A stretch of 64,000 nt of DNA from Ktedonobacteraceae bacterium (GTDB taxonomy: Bacteria; Chloroflexota; Ktedonobacteria; Ktedonobacterales; Ktedonobacteraceae), in the NCBI GenBank assembly GCA_035653615.1, contig DASRBN010000012.1, forward strand, positions 1 through 64,000, read 5' to 3'. Positions within the stretch are counted from its first letter, which is position 1. Each line of letters begins with the position of its first letter. The notes under the pieces were generated by a model that was not told the origin of the DNA, searched no databases, and saw only the letters and a list, made by a program, of their open reading frames with translations. A program made the translations under genes and the position numbers. Shown here piece after piece: positions 6,889 through 33,841 of this stretch.

Positions 6889-7411
6889 ACATGGTAAAAA
6901 TACTATGTTCCACGACTCTTGTGAACTTGTGATAATCATTCCAGTTGCAAGAATGTTACGGTGACATTGCTCTCTTATCCTTTCTCTCTGGTTGCATCCA
7001 GAATTCAGGAATATATGAATGATTTCAACCCCGGTCGGGCTTGCTAAAGCATTTAGCCTTCAGGAAATCACTATGTTCTTCTTGTTTCGTTTCAATCTCA
7101 AATGAGAAGCCAGGCCTTTTTAGCCTGATATAGCTCACAAGAGCCTGTGTTGAGCGTGGATTGTAGGGATCGAGTACCGGGCTAAAGCATGGCAGCACGT
7201 CTTTCCGCCAGAATGCGAGAAGTTTAAGTTTACTCTCCTGACTTGGATGTCGCTGTATGCTGGTTTCGTGCTGAAAAAGAGATCAAATATCATGGAACAG
7301 TTCTCGTGGATATAAGTTGGACGAATCTCTTTTCCTGCTGAAATACTACCATAACCAGAAGCTATTTACAAGGGAACAGGTTAGCTCTAGAGGTTCATTC
7401 ATGCAAACGAA
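6889..7411. other. non-coding region upstream of acs
   Basis: About 520 bases with no frame that resembles a gene. It must contain the acs promoter. I found no convincing -35/-10 pair, riboswitch or repeat of families A to D here. Confidence 0.3.
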
Positions 7412-9082: not shown

Positions 9083-10036
9083 TTATCTTTCTTCATCGGG
9101 CACAATCCAGGTTCCGGTCTGACCGGCCAGGGCCTGGTCGATAGTTTCGGGCATGGTTATTAGCGCGGCCTTTCCGCCTTGTTCGAGATAGTTGATGCAG
9201 GCCTGCACTTTTGGTCCCATGCTGCCCTTTGCGAAATGGCCCTGTTCGTAGTAACGCTTTGCCTCGCTCAGGGTAATACGGTCGAGATCGCGCTGGTCGG
9301 GTTTCTTGTAGTTCAAGGCAACCTTTTCCACGGCGGTTGAGATGAGGAAGAGGTCGGCATGTAATACCTGGGCAAGCAGGCTGGAAGCCAGGTCTTTGTC
9401 GATTACCGCCTCTACGCCTGAGAGCCTGCCCTCGCTATCGGCAACGACCGGAATGCCGCCGCCTCCCACGGCTACTACAATAACGCCGTTTTTGAGCAGC
9501 CAATCTATCACGTCGCGTTCGATTATTGCCCGCGGAAACGGAGATGATACAACGCGCCTCCACCCGCGCCCGGCATCTTCAACCATCTTCCAGCCCTCGC
9601 GCTCCATTTTGACGCGCGCCTCCTCTTCCTTGTAGAAAGAGCCGATGGGTTTGCTGGGATTGTGCATGGCCGGATCATTTTTATCGACCAGCACCTGCGT
9701 CACGACGGTCACGCACTGGCGCGAAATATCCCGGCGCAAAAATTCGTTGTGTAGCGCCTGCTGGATCATGTAGCCAATGGCGCCCTGCGTATCGGCCCCG
9801 CATGAATCGAGCGGGACGGTATGCAGCACGTGATGGGATAGCTCGGAGCGCAACAGGATGAAGCCGACCTGCGGCCCATTACCATGAGTGATGACCACAT
9901 TCCAGCCCTGCTCGATCATTCCGGCAATATGTACCGCCGTCTCGCGCACGGCATTGAATTGATCTGGTACGCTCTTGTGCGCCTCATCCTTGATTAAAGA
10001 GTTGCCGCCAATGGCAACCACGGCTAATTTACTCAT
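9083..10036 (-). CDS. arcC: carbamate kinase
   Basis: A 317-residue amino-acid-kinase-fold enzyme: carbamoyl phosphate + ADP to ATP + carbamate (then CO2 and NH3). Motifs VVAIGGNSLIKD at the N-terminus, THGNGPQVG, the VIVAVGGGGIPV loop and the IDKDLASSLLA segment are all typical, and the length is standard. The longer frame to 10081 is rejected: ATG at 10036 shares an ATGA overlap with the ygeY stop and has GGAGG just upstream, so the two are translationally coupled. It lies between YgeY and YgeW, the same association as yqeA in the E. coli purine cluster. Confidence 0.93.
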   Translation of the reverse strand: MSKLAVVAIGGNSLIKDEAHKSVPDQFNAVRETAVHIAGMIEQGWNVVITHGNGPQVGFILLRSELSHHVLHTVPLDSCGADTQGAIGYMIQQALHNEFLRRDISRQCVTVVTQVLVDKNDPAMHNPSKPIGSFYKEEEARVKMEREGWKMVEDAGRGWRRVVSSPFPRAIIERDVIDWLLKNGVIVVAVGGGGIPVVADSEGRLSGVEAVIDKDLASSLLAQVLHADLFLISTAVEKVALNYKKPDQRDLDRITLSEAKRYYEQGHFAKGSMGPKVQACINYLEQGGKAALITMPETIDQALAGQTGTWIVPDEER

Positions 10037-26612: not shown

Positions 26613-28779
26613 TCAATCCTGATTGAGCCGCAAGACCTGACTAAGTGATGGACGCACAGCCACACCTGCCATTGTTCCCAGCGTAAGCGCGCAAATGGCG
26701 ATAAATGCGATGAATGCCAGCACTAGCGAAAGTGGCAGAATAATTTGCACAGGAATGATTTGCTGAATAGCATAGAATTCGTCGTTGCTGATGCCGCTCA
26801 AGGCGCTACCGGCCGGTGCAGTGGTAAAAGTAAGCAAGGGTATGGCTGTAGCTGAAAACACTCCACCGAAGAGAATACCCAGCACGAGTGCTGTCATATA
26901 TATTATCCCCTGCTCCCAGAAGAGAACAGCGATAATCTGCCGTGGAGCCGCTCCTAGCGAACGCAGTACAGCGAAACCGGTCAGGCGAGAACGCACACTC
27001 ATCCACGAAGAGAGCAAATCTCCCACCAACGTCAACAGCAGCGCGGTCGTGGCCCCGGTTACAAGCAGGATAATGATGCTCAGATAGAGAGGGTCGCTGC
27101 GCATGCTCTCGATCAGCTGCTGGCGGTCATAGAGGTTATCAAGATGCAGCGGGCCTGGTTGTACCAGCACTGAACGCACATTTGTGAGTGCTACCGGATC
27201 ATCACTTGTATGGAGCCACACATGGTTCACTGGTAAATAGGGATGTGCTATTAAACCGCTTCTCAAGTAATCACGTGTATAGATGCTGGCATAAGTACTA
27301 TAGTCGAGCAGCACTCCACCGGGTAGTGTAGTGTCGCCGGTAGTGCTGCCGTCACCACTATTATTGATGGTAGGAATATGCCATACAGTAGCGATTACAA
27401 CACAATTCAGACTATCATAGGGCAGATTGTTCATCGTGACAGAAAAGGTGCTTCCAGTCTTCAAATCCAGCGTATTCATGACCTCAGCGTCGATAATTAC
27501 GGGAACAGTATCATTCAGGCTCCCATTCAACACATCTTGCTTTTGGGCGAGAAGCTGAGCCATTAATGAAGTAAGTGGTTGTGAAGAATCTTCAGGCGTC
27601 CAGATGGCCGTCTGCGCGAAAGTGCTGGCATCTACCGCACGAATTTGTAGAGGAATAATCGGTGAGGTGCCTGCTGAAGTCGCGGTATCCGTAAATCCAA
27701 CTGTAGCTGAAAGAACGCCTGCAATGTGTTGATAACGTGCAGTTTCCTGCGAGATAGAAGGGAGTTGATCAATTTGCTGAGCGAGAATGGGCCGGTCGCC
27801 GCTGAAGTCGGCTCCGGTTTCATACGCCGCAATATTAGCAATATGTGCCGACTGGGAAGCGGCAAAGACAAGTGTGAAGATGGCAAAAGCAACTGCCAGG
27901 GCCAGCAATAGTATCATGCGCAAAGCCTGGCGGGGAGCGCGAGCCATCTGCGCTAAGGCCAGTATAGCCGTCGCTCCACGACCCTGTGCAGAAAGCCGCG
28001 CTCCCCAACGCAACAATAGGGGAAAACCGCGTAGGAAGAGCAACAACACGGCGATCAGCAGAAAGAGAGGAGCAACCAGCGCGAGCGGCGTTGCAATCAG
28101 CGCCCGCGTGCGTGTATCTAACCACGTACTCAGGCTAGAAATATAGAAGGACATTCCATAGCCGGTAAGAGCAACCAGCGCGGCCAGTCTATCGAGATTG
28201 AGGCGTTGCCAGAGAGAAGGCTGCGTCGCGCGTGCTGCCTCACGCCGGGCAAGCAGGATGTTCAAGCCCAGCGCTCGGAAAAGTAAGAAGATCGTTACGA
28301 CTACTACTAACACAGCGGTTCCAAGCGCATACATTCCTACTCCTACGGCTTGAGATAGCAGCGAAAATGTGCCTGGAGAAAAAACATGCTGTCCAGCCGT
28401 CCCAAGAAAACGCTCGGAAATCGCTGAAACGAGCAGCACCGCCAGCACTGGCCCGGTAAGCATAGCCATAATACTTAGACTCGCGCTCTGGGTGAGTAGC
28501 GCGGTAAAAATCTGACCTGAACTTGCCCCGCGACTGCGCAGCAGGGCAATAGCCTCTTCCTGTCGTTCGACGAGCAGCTGGATCATCAAGGCAACGAAGA
28601 AAAGCAGGAGACCAAGTATCTCCAGCGAAAGCACTGTTATAGGGATGGACACGGCGGCGATATGATTACGATACTGATCCAGTGTATCCACAATGGAGTA
28701 GGAGCCTGGGGCAGGGTTATAGATGTTTACCTGCACCAGATAGGGAGAACGCAAACTGCCATCTGGTTGTGTTTCATTA
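26613..28779 (-). pseudogene. FtsX-type ABC permease, 5' end removed by an IS
   Basis: About 720 residues of a large permease with two FtsX cores: one near the surviving N-terminus (four membrane helices, then LLVERQEEAIALLRSRGAS, the coupling segment) and one near the C-terminus (WMSVRSRLTGFAVLRSLGAA). The N-terminal membrane helix and part of the first extracellular domain are missing: the reading frame runs into the IS1634-like element at 28780, and no matching 5' part exists beyond the other IS end. No ATPase gene is adjacent. It is therefore probably non-functional. Related intact proteins export or release lipoproteins, peptides or lipids. Confidence 0.75.
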
Positions 28780-30574
28780 CTCAGGGTTCGGTCAAAGAGT
28801 GACAAGATTTTGAAAATGCGGTAAGCTATCTGCATGGTAGAACAGATGAATATCACAACAGAACGAGTCGACGATCTTCCCCTCTTGCTGGGTCAAAGTG
28901 ACAAGATGGGAGTGCCAGAATTGCTGAATACCTATTTCAAGCCTCATGGGAACTGGGAGGGAATGAGCCTGGGCTGGACAACAGCGATCTGGATAACGCA
29001 CATCTTGTCGGAAGGCGATCACCGCATGAATCAAGTTCAAGGCTGGGCGGGGCAGCGCGTCCACACGCTCTCGGTCTGCAGCGGGCAAGAGGTGACCGAG
29101 CGCAGCTTGAGCGATGACCGCCTGGCACTGGTGCTCGATGCCCTCAGTGATGAACAGAAGTGGCAGCCGTTTGAGACGGCGTTGAACCGACAGCTCATTC
29201 GAGTCTACAACTTGAAGCCCAAGCGAGTGCGAGTCGATCGTACGACGGTCAGCGGCTACTGGAGCGTCAGCCAGGAGGGCTTGTTCCAATTCGGCTACAG
29301 CAAAGATCATCGTCCGGCCTTGCCGCAACTCAAGGTGATGCTCTCGGCCCTGGATCCGCTAGGGTTGCCGGTCGCGACGCAAATCGTCTCGGGGGAACGG
29401 GCCGACGATCACCTCTATCTTCCGGCCATTGCCCAAGTCAGTCAGAGCCTGGATGAGCATGGTCTGCTCTACATCGGCGATTGCAAGATGGCCGCCCTGG
29501 ACACCCGGGCGTATCTGCAGGCCCAACAGGACTACTATTTGTGTCCGCTGTCGGCTAAGCAGATGCCAGAGGAGGTCCTGGACGAGTACTTGAAGCCGGT
29601 GTGGGCAGGGGAGCAAGCCTTGACGCCGATCGTGCGCGAACGGGAAGGGGGCAAGCCGGAACAGATTGCTGAAGGATACGAGAAACGGGTCACGCTCTCG
29701 CGCGAAGTGGCAGGAAAGACGATCAGTTGGACGGAACGGCAGTTGATCGTGCGTTCCTCCAAGCTGACTCAAGCGGCGACCCAGGCGCTGCATGCCCGTT
29801 TGGCCAAAGCTCAGGCCGAACTGGAAGCGCTCAATGAACACAAACAAGGCAAAAAACGCTACACGGAGACGGCGGCGTTGCGAGCCGCTGCCCAAGCCAT
29901 CCTCAAGCAGTATCACGTCGAAGGATTGGTGCAGGTGAGCATTGAAGAACAGGTCCAAGAGCGAGCGGTGCGGGGGTATGGAGGCCGTCCTGCTGGCGTG
30001 CGCGTGGAAGGCAGCCTGCACCTGCACATCAAGGTCGATGAGCAAGCGCTCGCCAGAGGAGTGCGCCGCCTGGGATGGCGGGTCTATGTCACCAATCATC
30101 CGGCAGAGGAACTCTCGCTCTCGCAAGCGGTGCTGGCGTACCGCGAAGAATACCTGGTGGAGCACGGCTTTGCTCGCTTGAAAGGCAAACCCCTCTCGCT
30201 CTCGCCCATGGATGTGCAGAGTGAGCAGCGCGCCATTGGCTTGGTGCGCTTGCTCTCTATCGGCTTGCGCATCTTGACCCTGCTGGAGTTCCGGGTGCGT
30301 CAGCGCTTGGCTGAGCAGCAAGAACCTCTGGCAGGGTTGTATGCGGGCAATCCCAAACGCAGCACGCAACGTCCCACAGCTGAGGCGTTGTTGACAGCTT
30401 TTCAAGGGATTCATTTGTCTCTCGTTATCTTGCAGCAGCAGCTTCACCGTCATCTCACTCCTTTGTCAACCTTACAACAGCGCATCTTATCTCTGTTGGA
30501 CTTTTCGTCCGATCTCTATGAGCAGCTTCTGTGCTGAATTTCCAAAACCTCCTAGAAAATGACCGAACCGTGAG
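28780..30574 (+). mobile_element. IS1634-like insertion sequence
   Basis: Terminal inverted repeats CTCAGGGTTCGGTCA (28780-28794) and TGACCGAACCGTGAG (30560-30574) match at 14 of 15 positions and bracket a single 567-codon transposase gene. Length is about 1.8 kb. I could not find a target-site duplication outside the repeats, which fits the loss of the permease 5' end by an adjacent deletion. Confidence 0.8.
28834..30537 (+). CDS. IS1634-family transposase (DDE type)
   Basis: A 567-residue DDE transposase. Catalytic candidates are D135 (VRVDRTTVSG), D216 (YIGDCKM) and the glutamate in LVEHGFARLKG near the C-terminus. The ERADDHLYLPAI segment and the C-terminal helix LVRLLSIGLRIL are typical of IS1634/IS4-superfamily members. 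The frame is complete and unbroken. ATG 28834 and ATG 28846 are both possible starts; neither has a strong ribosome site, which is usual for transposases. Confidence 0.88.
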   Translation: MVEQMNITTERVDDLPLLLGQSDKMGVPELLNTYFKPHGNWEGMSLGWTTAIWITHILSEGDHRMNQVQGWAGQRVHTLSVCSGQEVTERSLSDDRLALVLDALSDEQKWQPFETALNRQLIRVYNLKPKRVRVDRTTVSGYWSVSQEGLFQFGYSKDHRPALPQLKVMLSALDPLGLPVATQIVSGERADDHLYLPAIAQVSQSLDEHGLLYIGDCKMAALDTRAYLQAQQDYYLCPLSAKQMPEEVLDEYLKPVWAGEQALTPIVREREGGKPEQIAEGYEKRVTLSREVAGKTISWTERQLIVRSSKLTQAATQALHARLAKAQAELEALNEHKQGKKRYTETAALRAAAQAILKQYHVEGLVQVSIEEQVQERAVRGYGGRPAGVRVEGSLHLHIKVDEQALARGVRRLGWRVYVTNHPAEELSLSQAVLAYREEYLVEHGFARLKGKPLSLSPMDVQSEQRAIGLVRLLSIGLRILTLLEFRVRQRLAEQQEPLAGLYAGNPKRSTQRPTAEALLTAFQGIHLSLVILQQQLHRHLTPLSTLQQRILSLLDFSSDLYEQLLC

Positions 30575-31991: not shown

Positions 31992-32122
31992 ACGTTTTTG
32001 TAACTCATGAGGGGAGCGGAGAAAATAGTGCCGTATTGAGCGTGCTTGTTCTTTGATAGATAAAGAACAACTGAAAGGTTAAACTTAGTACCGTCAGATA
32101 TTGTTGAGTTCAACAATGACTG

Positions 32123-33085
32123 CTACGATGATACTACCGATGGGATTGTACTTAGCAGCTCTCGTAAGAGATCATAGTTACTTACTGCTCCTTTCGCGCG
32201 AACTACGTTTTTATCATCAAGTACAAAAAGAAATGGGAAAACGTGTACATGATAAATATCTTCCAAAGGGCCTGGAATAGAGGTAAGGACAGGTATATCA
32301 ATTTGATGCTCAGTAACATATTTACGATTCACATCAAGATTAGGACTTGCTACAACAAGTCCTGCGAGTTCTGGCTCTTCTTGAAGTACACGATTAAGAG
32401 CCTTAAGCGCATGAGGACAAGCAGGGCATCCAGGCGAGATAAATAAGAGTAGGAGCCATTTAGCCTTGAAATCATTCAGGCCGACACTTTTACCATTTTG
32501 ATCTCTAGTAGTAAACCCAGGAGCCATCTCGCCCACCTCAATTCCCCCAAGTTCTGTATAATGTGTAGAAGTTGGAGAAAACTTTTCTTTGCTTTTAACC
32601 AGCATTTTTATCGCAAGAAATCCCTCACCTACAATAAATAGAGTAATCCCTATTGATCGCCACATCCAGTTTACTGAAGGTACCCAAATGATCAGGCCCA
32701 AGTGGATAAGGGTACATAGAATCAGTATAACTGAGACTACAATGCTGCTACCACTGATCTCCTCTATTTTTGCATTTCCGTAGCAACCGCAGTCTTTGGC
32801 ACGTCCTGTGATTAAAAGAATGATCTTTGTACTAAGGAAACTGCCAAAAAGAATGACTACAATTATCGCATTAATTACTTTTGCAAAGCCTGTAACGAGA
32901 AAGAAAGCTATAACTATTTCTAACCAAGGCAAGATTCTTGCAACTGATTTTATACTCCAAGATGGTATAATGTGCTGACGAGACAATATTTCTTCGAAAT
33001 TACTCAGGTCATCAATTTTTGTTAAACCTGATACACCCAGCATGGCTGCAAAGTAGAGTTCAAGCGCAAAAGAGATAAGACTCAT
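32123..33085 (-). CDS. fusion of MauE/DoxX-like membrane protein and thioredoxin-like domain
   Basis: A 320-residue protein. The N-terminal half has four to five membrane helices and a MauE/DoxX-type cysteine motif DCGCYG (C99, C101); the C-terminal half is a TlpA/redoxin-like thioredoxin domain with active site CPAC (C220, C223), preceded by GEMAPGFTTRDQNGKSVGL. MauE and MauD, the separate counterparts, form disulfides in methylamine dehydrogenase light chain. Here both are one polypeptide that would carry electrons across the membrane and act on an exported substrate. The small cysteine-rich protein 125 bases upstream is the obvious candidate. ATG at 33085 has AGGAGAT before it. Confidence 0.8.
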   Translation of the reverse strand: MSLISFALELYFAAMLGVSGLTKIDDLSNFEEILSRQHIIPSWSIKSVARILPWLEIVIAFFLVTGFAKVINAIIVVILFGSFLSTKIILLITGRAKDCGCYGNAKIEEISGSSIVVSVILILCTLIHLGLIIWVPSVNWMWRSIGITLFIVGEGFLAIKMLVKSKEKFSPTSTHYTELGGIEVGEMAPGFTTRDQNGKSVGLNDFKAKWLLLLFISPGCPACPHALKALNRVLQEEPELAGLVVASPNLDVNRKYVTEHQIDIPVLTSIPGPLEDIYHVHVFPFLFVLDDKNVVRAKGAVSNYDLLRELLSTIPSVVSS

Positions 33086-33210
33086 ACTATCTCCTGATTC
33101 GGATAGCTGCACTACCTATTAATAGATTTACGCTTATTCAGGTTTTGATTTACTGGCTGAACGAGGGTCTAACGTAATTGTTGAAACAAATATAATTGTT
33201 TTCTTACAAT

Positions 33211-33525
33211 CTAAGGACACTTTGCAGCGAAATTATAGCAGTAGCAAAATCCAGCACCACAACAGTCATAACACCAGTAATTAAGATTTGGATCTATTGA
33301 ACACCATGTTGACTGAAAGACGCAATACACATTCTGGCACGGGTAGTAATTGGGAGTTGCCTGACGTTGTGATACTTTTATTCGGGAACCCTTAGCTAGA
33401 GCCTGTGCCGCTGGAATGAATGCAAAAAGGCCTGCTCCAATTTCTGCAGCTATTTTAAATAAATGACGACGTGGTAATTTTTCCTGCTGATGGAGTTCAT
33501 CATTTTGCCGATTCTTGTCTGCCAT
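33211..33525 (-). CDS. Tat-exported cysteine-rich small protein
   Basis: A 104-residue precursor. A twin-arginine motif (LPRRHLFK) precedes a hydrophobic stretch ending IPAAQALA, a good Tat signal with cleavage after ALA. The mature part, about 70 residues, holds nine cysteines in its last 40 positions plus two tryptophans (STWCS, NYWCYDCCG). This is like a much shortened MauA light chain, but the tryptophylquinone arrangement cannot be confirmed. ATG at 33525 has AGAGG upstream and is preferred over ATG 33546. It is cotranscribed with the MauE-thioredoxin fusion. Confidence 0.7.
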   Translation of the reverse strand: MADKNRQNDELHQQEKLPRRHLFKIAAEIGAGLFAFIPAAQALAKGSRIKVSQRQATPNYYPCQNVYCVFQSTWCSIDPNLNYWCYDCCGAGFCYCYNFAAKCP

Positions 33526-33841
33526 AGGATTGCCTCTTTCTGACATAAAACTACAACAAGAATAGCTGGTGACTCAAATTGAGTTCCATGAATATAGTAC
33601 TTGAGATTATGCCATTTGTCAAGCTTTACGTGAACAATCGTAAATTTGCGTTGTCATGTCTTTGAACTCAGTTAATTCGACTTTTATGAACTTTAAATAA
33701 TTTATTAGCAGTATGCACTGTGCCAATTTCTACTCCCATTAATTTTTTAAACTCCATAATAGCCCTACATCAGTTCCGCCCCAAATATGTTATGATTGAA
33801 CCAGCCAACCGAACATTCTTGCTCATTCACTCATAACTTTC
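33526..33841. other. AT-rich divergent intergenic region
   Basis: About 315 bases between the divergent small Tat protein gene and the GH9 gene. It is noticeably richer in A and T than its surroundings and must hold both promoters. No repeat of families A to D and no clear promoter pair was found. Confidence 0.3.

What the first reader, a model, noticed from the sequence alone, without database searches (positions are those of the whole stretch)
32123..33525. Tat-exported nine-cysteine protein with a fused MauE-thioredoxin partner
The small protein has a twin-arginine signal and packs nine cysteines and two tryptophans into its last 40 residues. The adjacent protein fuses a MauE/DoxX-like membrane part to a thioredoxin domain with a CPAC site. 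In methylamine dehydrogenase, separate MauE and MauD proteins shape disulfides in the light chain. This looks like a compact system to oxidise a new exported cysteine-rich or quinone-bearing peptide, without the heavy-chain gene.
Basis: partly seen in the sequence, partly recalled or inferred. Interest (0 to 1): 0.7.

Follow-up and report, generated by a model that had tools for sequence, protein, structure and literature searches.

The report
Disulfide-making pair for exported cysteine-rich peptide
A bacterium of the class Ktedonobacteria carries a small protein packed with cysteines and, next to it, a membrane-bound thioredoxin fusion that probably forms its disulfide bonds outside the cell; the same kind of pairing recurs across the phylum and at nine of ten such genes in this genome, but what the peptides do is not known.

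Summary
A 104-residue protein (33525-33211, minus strand) has a twin-arginine leader and nine cysteines plus two tryptophans in its last 42 residues. Next to it, probably in one operon, lies a 320-residue MauE-TlpA fusion with a CGC loop and a CPAC site.

The pairing recurs. Three relatives of the small protein in two other Ktedonobacteria genomes each sit beside a MauE gene. More generally, 31 of 86 MauE loci in Chloroflexota have a Tat-type cysteine-rich small ORF within 3 kb (36 ORFs in 521 kb, against 3 spurious ones in 418 kb of control DNA). In this genome 9 of 10 MauE genes have such a neighbour, if leader peptides without a Tat motif are counted.

The quinone half is not: no similarity to the methylamine dehydrogenase light chain above shuffled controls, tryptophans not conserved, no MauG in the genome.

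MauE/MauD with cysteine-rich precursors was already proposed in Streptomyces (decRiPPter, PMC7794033). This is a Tat-delivered, fused variant of that kind in another phylum. The peptide's function is unknown; a secreted disulfide-rich effector is the best guess.

The parts
33211..33525 (-). Tat-type cysteine-rich small protein, 104 aa (111 aa from the upstream ATG at 33546)
   Evidence: ORF and RBS; family with three relatives in other genomes
33394..33525 (-). Predicted Tat leader, MADK...RRHLFK...AQALA
   Evidence: Read from the sequence; TatC is present in the genome; Pfam TAT_signal itself did not hit this member but hits relatives weakly
33454..33471 (-). Twin-arginine motif RRHLFK
   Evidence: Translation; RR and an AGLFAFIP-like stretch are kept in the relatives
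33211..33339 (-). Cysteine-rich tail with 9 Cys and 2 Trp
   Evidence: Translation; four of the Cys columns are invariant in the family
32123..33085 (-). MauE-TlpA fusion, 320 aa
   Evidence: Pfam MauE 1.6e-20 and AhpC-TSA 8e-12; AGGAG ribosome site before ATG 33085
32702..33082 (-). MauE membrane domain
   Evidence: PF07291 match; hydrophobic segments
32783..32791 (-). CGC motif in a loop between membrane segments, invariant in the subfamily
   Evidence: Alignment A1
32195..32536 (-). TlpA/AhpC-TSA thioredoxin-like domain
   Evidence: PF00578 match; ResA and other thioredoxin-family structures by sequence
32417..32428 (-). CPAC redox site
   Evidence: Translation
33594..33622 (-). Promoter-like site TTGACA-17-TACTAT upstream of the small gene (consensus match only)
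   Evidence: no terminator-like site on the minus strand between the two genes

Best explanation
The pair is a dedicated disulfide-forming module. The small protein is exported by the Tat system (inferred from the leader; TatC is present). Outside the membrane its cysteines are oxidised by the CPAC thioredoxin domain of the fusion protein. That domain is re-oxidised by the CGC loop of the MauE part, which passes the electrons to the membrane quinone pool, as DsbA and DsbB do together in Escherichia coli (inferred). In most other loci MauE and the thioredoxin are separate proteins; here they are one. The product is a small disulfide-rich exported peptide, more likely a secreted or cell-surface effector or antimicrobial-like peptide than an enzyme subunit (weak inference). 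Shown: domains, gene pairing, recurrence, conserved cysteines. Inferred: export, direction of redox flow, substrate relation, function.
For: The domain hits. Co-occurrence: three relatives of the small protein in G035 (two) and G021, each adjacent to MauE. MauE loci generally: strict Tat plus Cys-rich ORF within 3 kb at 15 of 45 loci in the class and 16 of 41 elsewhere in the phylum, 36 ORFs in 521 kb against 3 spurious ones in 418 kb of control DNA (two-sided binomial p 8e-7). Nine of ten MauE genes of this genome have a Cys-rich leader or Tat protein nearby. The genome already has two VKOR proteins for general disulfides, so ten MauE copies suggest dedicated use. The Tat core is more alike (53%) than the mature part (31%, 27% without Cys) in the family, the pattern of a shared export leader with a fast-changing product. 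Published precedents with the same logic: MauE/MauD with precursors of at least 8 Cys (PMC7794033); SviE (DoxX) plus SviF (thioredoxin) in class I lasso peptide clusters (PMC9266682).
Against: No biochemical evidence. All four family members have an odd number of cysteines in the tail (9, 9, 7, 5), so at least one is left unpaired within the chain, which simple full pairing does not explain. TlpA-type domains are often reductants or isomerases. In class I lasso peptides the corresponding genes could be deleted without losing the product (PMC9266682). One relative (L045) has a frameshifted MauE gene. Structure prediction was uninformative (pLDDT 47).
Confidence: 0.66

Rival explanations
1. The small protein is a reduced or truncated relative of the methylamine dehydrogenase light chain that carries a tryptophan-derived quinone.
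For: MauE partner, Tat leader, a DCCG string that resembles MauA by eye; true MADH light chain homologues exist in other Chloroflexota MauE loci.
Against: hhalign against a MauA profile is no better than column-shuffled controls (5/60 for the family, 7/60 for the protein alone reach the score), while a known homologue gives 98.9% and 0/60. Trp not conserved in the family. No MauG in the genome, with controls ringing. Heavy chain not found, though that control was silent.
Confidence: 0.03
2. The cysteines bind a metal, and the thioredoxin domain keeps them reduced so that the metal can be loaded; the pair is a metal-handling module.
For: Odd Cys numbers in all four members; TlpA/ResA-type domains often act as reductants, and ResA is among the nearest solved relatives.
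Against: MauE in its known system is thought to act on a disulfide-rich protein (PMC7794033 citing van der Palen 1997); number and spacing of Cys vary strongly within the family and between the families beside MauE, unlike a metal site.
Confidence: 0.12
3. The neighbouring genes are independent: a general TlpA-MauE thiol system next to an unrelated small exported protein.
For: The two genes are 125 bp apart; genomes of the class have many TlpA-like genes.
Against: The pair is kept with the small protein's relatives in other genera, in both gene orders, and MauE loci are strongly enriched for such ORFs.
Confidence: 0.1
4. The module makes a disulfide-rich bacteriocin-like or signalling peptide, i.e. 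it is a RiPP-like cluster whose only modification is disulfide bonds. This adds a purpose to the best explanation rather than replacing it.
For: Leader more conserved than product; several paralogous families per genome; a sister set of non-Tat Cys-rich leader peptides with MauE, TlpA and, in several loci, a fused ABC exporter, once with four tandem precursors.
Against: No exporter, protease or immunity gene recognised at the window locus; the nearest permease is of another family and truncated by an IS element. No activity shown.
Confidence: 0.3

Closest known systems
mau operon maturation pair MauE/MauD with light chain MauA (Paracoccus denitrificans, L223)
   Same: MauE homologue over the Pfam cut-off; thioredoxin-like partner; Tat-type leader on a disulfide-rich protein; adjacent genes
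   Different: MauE and thioredoxin fused; the small protein's mature part is about half the size and has no detectable MauA similarity; no MauB, MauG, MauF or amicyanin recognised at the locus; thioredoxin part scores 42 bits against the MauD cut-off of 188.6
decRiPPter candidate RiPP families with mauE (and mauD) homologues and precursors of at least 8 Cys in Streptomyces (PMC7794033)
   Same: MauE/MauD homologues beside a small Cys-rich precursor, outside methylamine metabolism
   Different: Here the precursor has a Tat leader, the partners are fused, and the phylum is Chloroflexota; sequence relation to the Streptomyces precursors not tested
Class I lasso peptide genes sviE (DoxX) and sviF (thioredoxin)
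   Same: DoxX/MauE-type membrane protein plus CXXC thioredoxin proposed for disulfide bonds of a secreted peptide (PMC9266682)
   Different: No lasso enzymes were recognised among the neighbours examined here; nine Cys instead of four; deletion of the svi/msl genes did not abolish the product
Chloroflexota MADH-light-chain homologues in MauE loci (L218, L211, Thermomicrobium roseum L222)
   Same: Tat-type leader and MauE in the same locus, same phylum or neighbouring group
   Different: Those match PF02975 (E 1e-10 and 3e-9) and have Trp at the TTQ positions; the window protein does not match

Membership tests
Methylamine dehydrogenase light chain (PF02975) | Sequence profile match | tested here: not met
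   No Pfam hit; no hit over cut-off in 47 genomes of the class; hhalign at shuffle level with working positive control
Methylamine dehydrogenase light chain (PF02975) | Two conserved Trp that form TTQ | tested here: not met
   Trp not conserved among the four family members
Methylamine dehydrogenase system | MauG for TTQ synthesis | tested here: not met
   PF03150 absent from the genome; controls and Paracoccus ring; genome estimated 95% complete
Methylamine dehydrogenase system | Heavy chain MauB | tested here: inconclusive
   PF06433 not found, but no control genome rang
MauE family (PF07291) | Profile over the curated cut-off | tested here: met
   74.2 bits against 27
MauD (TIGR02661) | Equivalog cut-off 188.6 bits | tested here: not met
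   42.2 bits: thioredoxin relative, not a MauD equivalog
MauE-type Cys-rich precursor clusters (decRiPPter kind) | MauE homologue beside a precursor with at least 8 Cys, outside a mau operon | tested here: met
   9 Cys, MauE adjacent, no MADH parts; relatives have 9, 7 and 5 Cys
Tat substrate | Twin-arginine motif, weakly hydrophobic stretch, AxA site, Tat translocase in the genome | tested here: met
   Sequence reading; TatC at E 8e-62; Pfam TAT_signal did not report this member
Tat substrate | Actual export | not testable with these tools
   Needs an experiment
Disulfide-oxidising pair (DsbA/DsbB-like function) | Oxidising redox potential and substrate oxidation | not testable with these tools
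   Needs biochemistry
Class I lasso peptide cluster | Macrolactam synthetase and split B enzymes beside the precursor | not tested
   Only some neighbouring genes were scanned against Pfam; none looked like these enzymes

The most novel reading that the evidence does not exclude
Chloroflexota, and Ktedonobacteria above all, use MauE/TlpA modules as a general platform for a large, fast-evolving set of exported disulfide-rich peptides (Tat-delivered and ABC-exported), a class of disulfide-only ribosomal products of which the methylamine dehydrogenase light chain is one specialised offshoot.
Probability: 0.3. Interest if true: 0.75.

Novelty: new variant of a known kind. Interest (0 to 1): 0.5.

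Why it matters
If true, MauE, known mainly from methylamine dehydrogenase, is a widespread dedicated disulfide-forming enzyme for exported small proteins. That would make the open question of what MauE and MauD do chemically testable on a 60-residue substrate with a one-protein enzyme. It also points to a large uncharted pool of disulfide-rich peptides in Ktedonobacteria.

Tried and rejected
MauA homology of the small protein: rejected by profile comparison with shuffles and a positive control. The DCCG string shared with MauA is a five-column match of no weight. Quinone cofactor: rejected. A third component at the window locus: the ~110-residue gene downstream of the small protein in L045, L046 and L050, and the 'GRVIVELW' protein of the TatB-type loci, were sought in the window by tblastn and not found. 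FtsX permeases in the window as partners: the 947-residue one and the truncated 747-residue one do not belong to the permease family that accompanies the TatA-type loci. Database scans with the small protein alone: nothing in plasmids or GTDB contigs; the fusion found no relative in viral contigs. Weak further candidates from the profile search (L229, L230, L233) were read and are not Tat/Cys ORFs.

Full report
What is there. The window lies in a 6.6-Mb, 44-contig genome. On the minus strand a small gene (33525-33211) is followed after 125 bases by a fusion gene (33085-32123). A promoter-like site lies upstream of the first, and no terminator-like site on that strand lies between them. The small protein reads MADKNRQNDELHQQEKLPRRHLFKIAAEIGAGLFAFIPAAQALA followed by a 60-residue tail with nine cysteines, two tryptophans and seven tyrosines. 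It has no Pfam, NCBIfam or plasmid match and no significant PDB match. The fusion has a MauE domain, a CGC loop and a TlpA-type thioredoxin domain with CPAC.

Recurrence of this very pair. A profile of the family finds four members in 47 genomes of the class: the window, two in G035 and one in G021. All four are next to a MauE gene, in both gene orders. The leader core is 53% alike on average, the tail 31%, and 27% once cysteines are removed. In the other three loci MauE is not fused to a thioredoxin, and a ~110-residue protein with weak mutual similarity follows the small gene; the window lacks it. One of the MauE genes (L045) is frameshifted.

Recurrence of the arrangement. MauE genes were located in 47 genomes of the class and 301 of the phylum and their surroundings fetched. 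A fixed rule (start codon, RR, hydrophobic stretch, mature part of at most 150 residues with at least 6 Cys at 7.5% or more) finds such an ORF within 3 kb at 15 of 45 class loci and 16 of 41 other loci, 36 ORFs in 521 kb. In 158 kb around weak DoxX-like hits and 260 kb of arbitrary regions of the same genomes it finds three, all of which look spurious (p 8e-7 for the rates; at least one of the 36 also looks spurious). The rule was fixed after looking at some of the class loci; the other-phylum set was surveyed with an earlier form of it before the strict form. The rule misses further types seen by eye: one family member with 5 Cys (L046), two Tat types (L124; L115/L119), and a family of leader peptides without a Tat motif (MQTLLNNTDALISK...APQARAKA followed by a Cys-rich core) at eight loci, once in four tandem copies, accompanied by MauE, TlpA and, in several, a fused ABC exporter. 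Counting these, at least 27 of 45 class loci and 9 of the 10 MauE genes of the window's own genome have a Cys-rich partner; the hand-added ones were not put through the control.

Relation to methylamine dehydrogenase. Some Chloroflexota MauE loci do hold light-chain homologues (PF02975, E 1e-10 and 3e-9; PDB light chains at E about 1e-9 to 1e-10), and Thermomicrobium roseum has an annotated one beside a MauE gene. The window family is not one of them by any test run here. Its profile score against MauA is reached by 5 of 60 column shuffles (7 of 60 for the protein alone), while a held-out true homologue gives 98.9% probability with 0 of 60. The tryptophans are not conserved. The genome has no MauG and no detected heavy chain (silent control).

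Mechanism. The best reading is a DsbA/DsbB-like relay in one polypeptide: CPAC oxidises the exported peptide, CGC re-oxidises CPAC, quinone takes the electrons. This needs the CGC loop and the thioredoxin domain both outside, which follows if there are five membrane segments with the N terminus inside; the hydropathy plot is compatible, but the second and third segments are not resolved from each other. The genome has TatC and two VKOR proteins, so a general disulfide system exists and the MauE copies look dedicated. None of the chemical steps is shown.

Novelty. The pairing of MauE/MauD homologues with precursors of at least 8 Cys was proposed for three Streptomyces candidate families in 2020 (PMC7794033), and DoxX plus thioredoxin genes accompany class I lasso peptides (PMC9266682). 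What is new here is Tat delivery, the fused enzyme, the phylum, and the scale. No paper on it was found in the library searched, which lacks most subscription journals.

What is left unexplained. All four family members have an odd number of cysteines in the tail (9, 9, 7, 5), so one thiol is free, links two chains, or carries something. The product's function is open. The shared leader with a variable tail, and the sister set with ABC exporters, point to secreted effector-like peptides, but no activity, immunity gene or protease was identified at this locus.

Noticed in passing
L116:6163-7837 (+), also L064, L108, L113, L117, L122, L123, L127: A family of Cys-rich peptides with a conserved non-Tat leader (MQTLLNNTDALISKFAPLSHLLDSLAQRIAPQARAKA-type) beside MauE, TlpA and in several loci a fused ABC exporter; four tandem copies in L116. 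Possibly an undescribed disulfide-rich secreted peptide family of Ktedonobacteria.
   Followed up: partly
L218:3332-3751, L208:996-1733, L211:6094-6543, L222:1696-2148 and about 7001-7291: Methylamine dehydrogenase light-chain homologues in MauE loci of Chloroflexota and Thermomicrobium; PF02975 confirmed for L218 and L211. In L211 both TTQ tryptophan positions are kept by alignment, yet no MauG was found in the genomes searched (for Thermomicrobium roseum only the plasmid).
   Followed up: partly
window 28780-30574: IS1634-family element with 15-bp imperfect inverted repeats; the FtsX-type permease at 26613-28780 lacks about 225 N-terminal residues relative to a homologue in L131 and begins at the element.
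   Followed up: partly
L126:6800-7369 and 9123-9686, L055:2464-2736, L211:14206-14499, L050:148-411: A small protein with the motif YLGRVIVELWE, sometimes duplicated, accompanies most TatB-type Cys-rich genes and also occurs in the G021 locus of the window's family; no Pfam match for the one tested.
   Followed up: partly
L060:1-10523: Cys-rich Tat proteins with MauE-TlpA-TlpA fusions alternate with five paralogues that look like secreted phospholipase C/phosphoesterase-type proteins (family recalled, not searched).
   Followed up: no
L045:7047-7627: The MauE gene beside a member of the window's family is frameshifted near its start; no intact MauE is seen in that locus.
   Followed up: no
window 33572-33584 and 32103-32114: Short palindromes (ACTCAAATTGAGT and GTTGAGTTCAAC) flank the two genes; possibly operator sites, possibly chance.
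   Followed up: no
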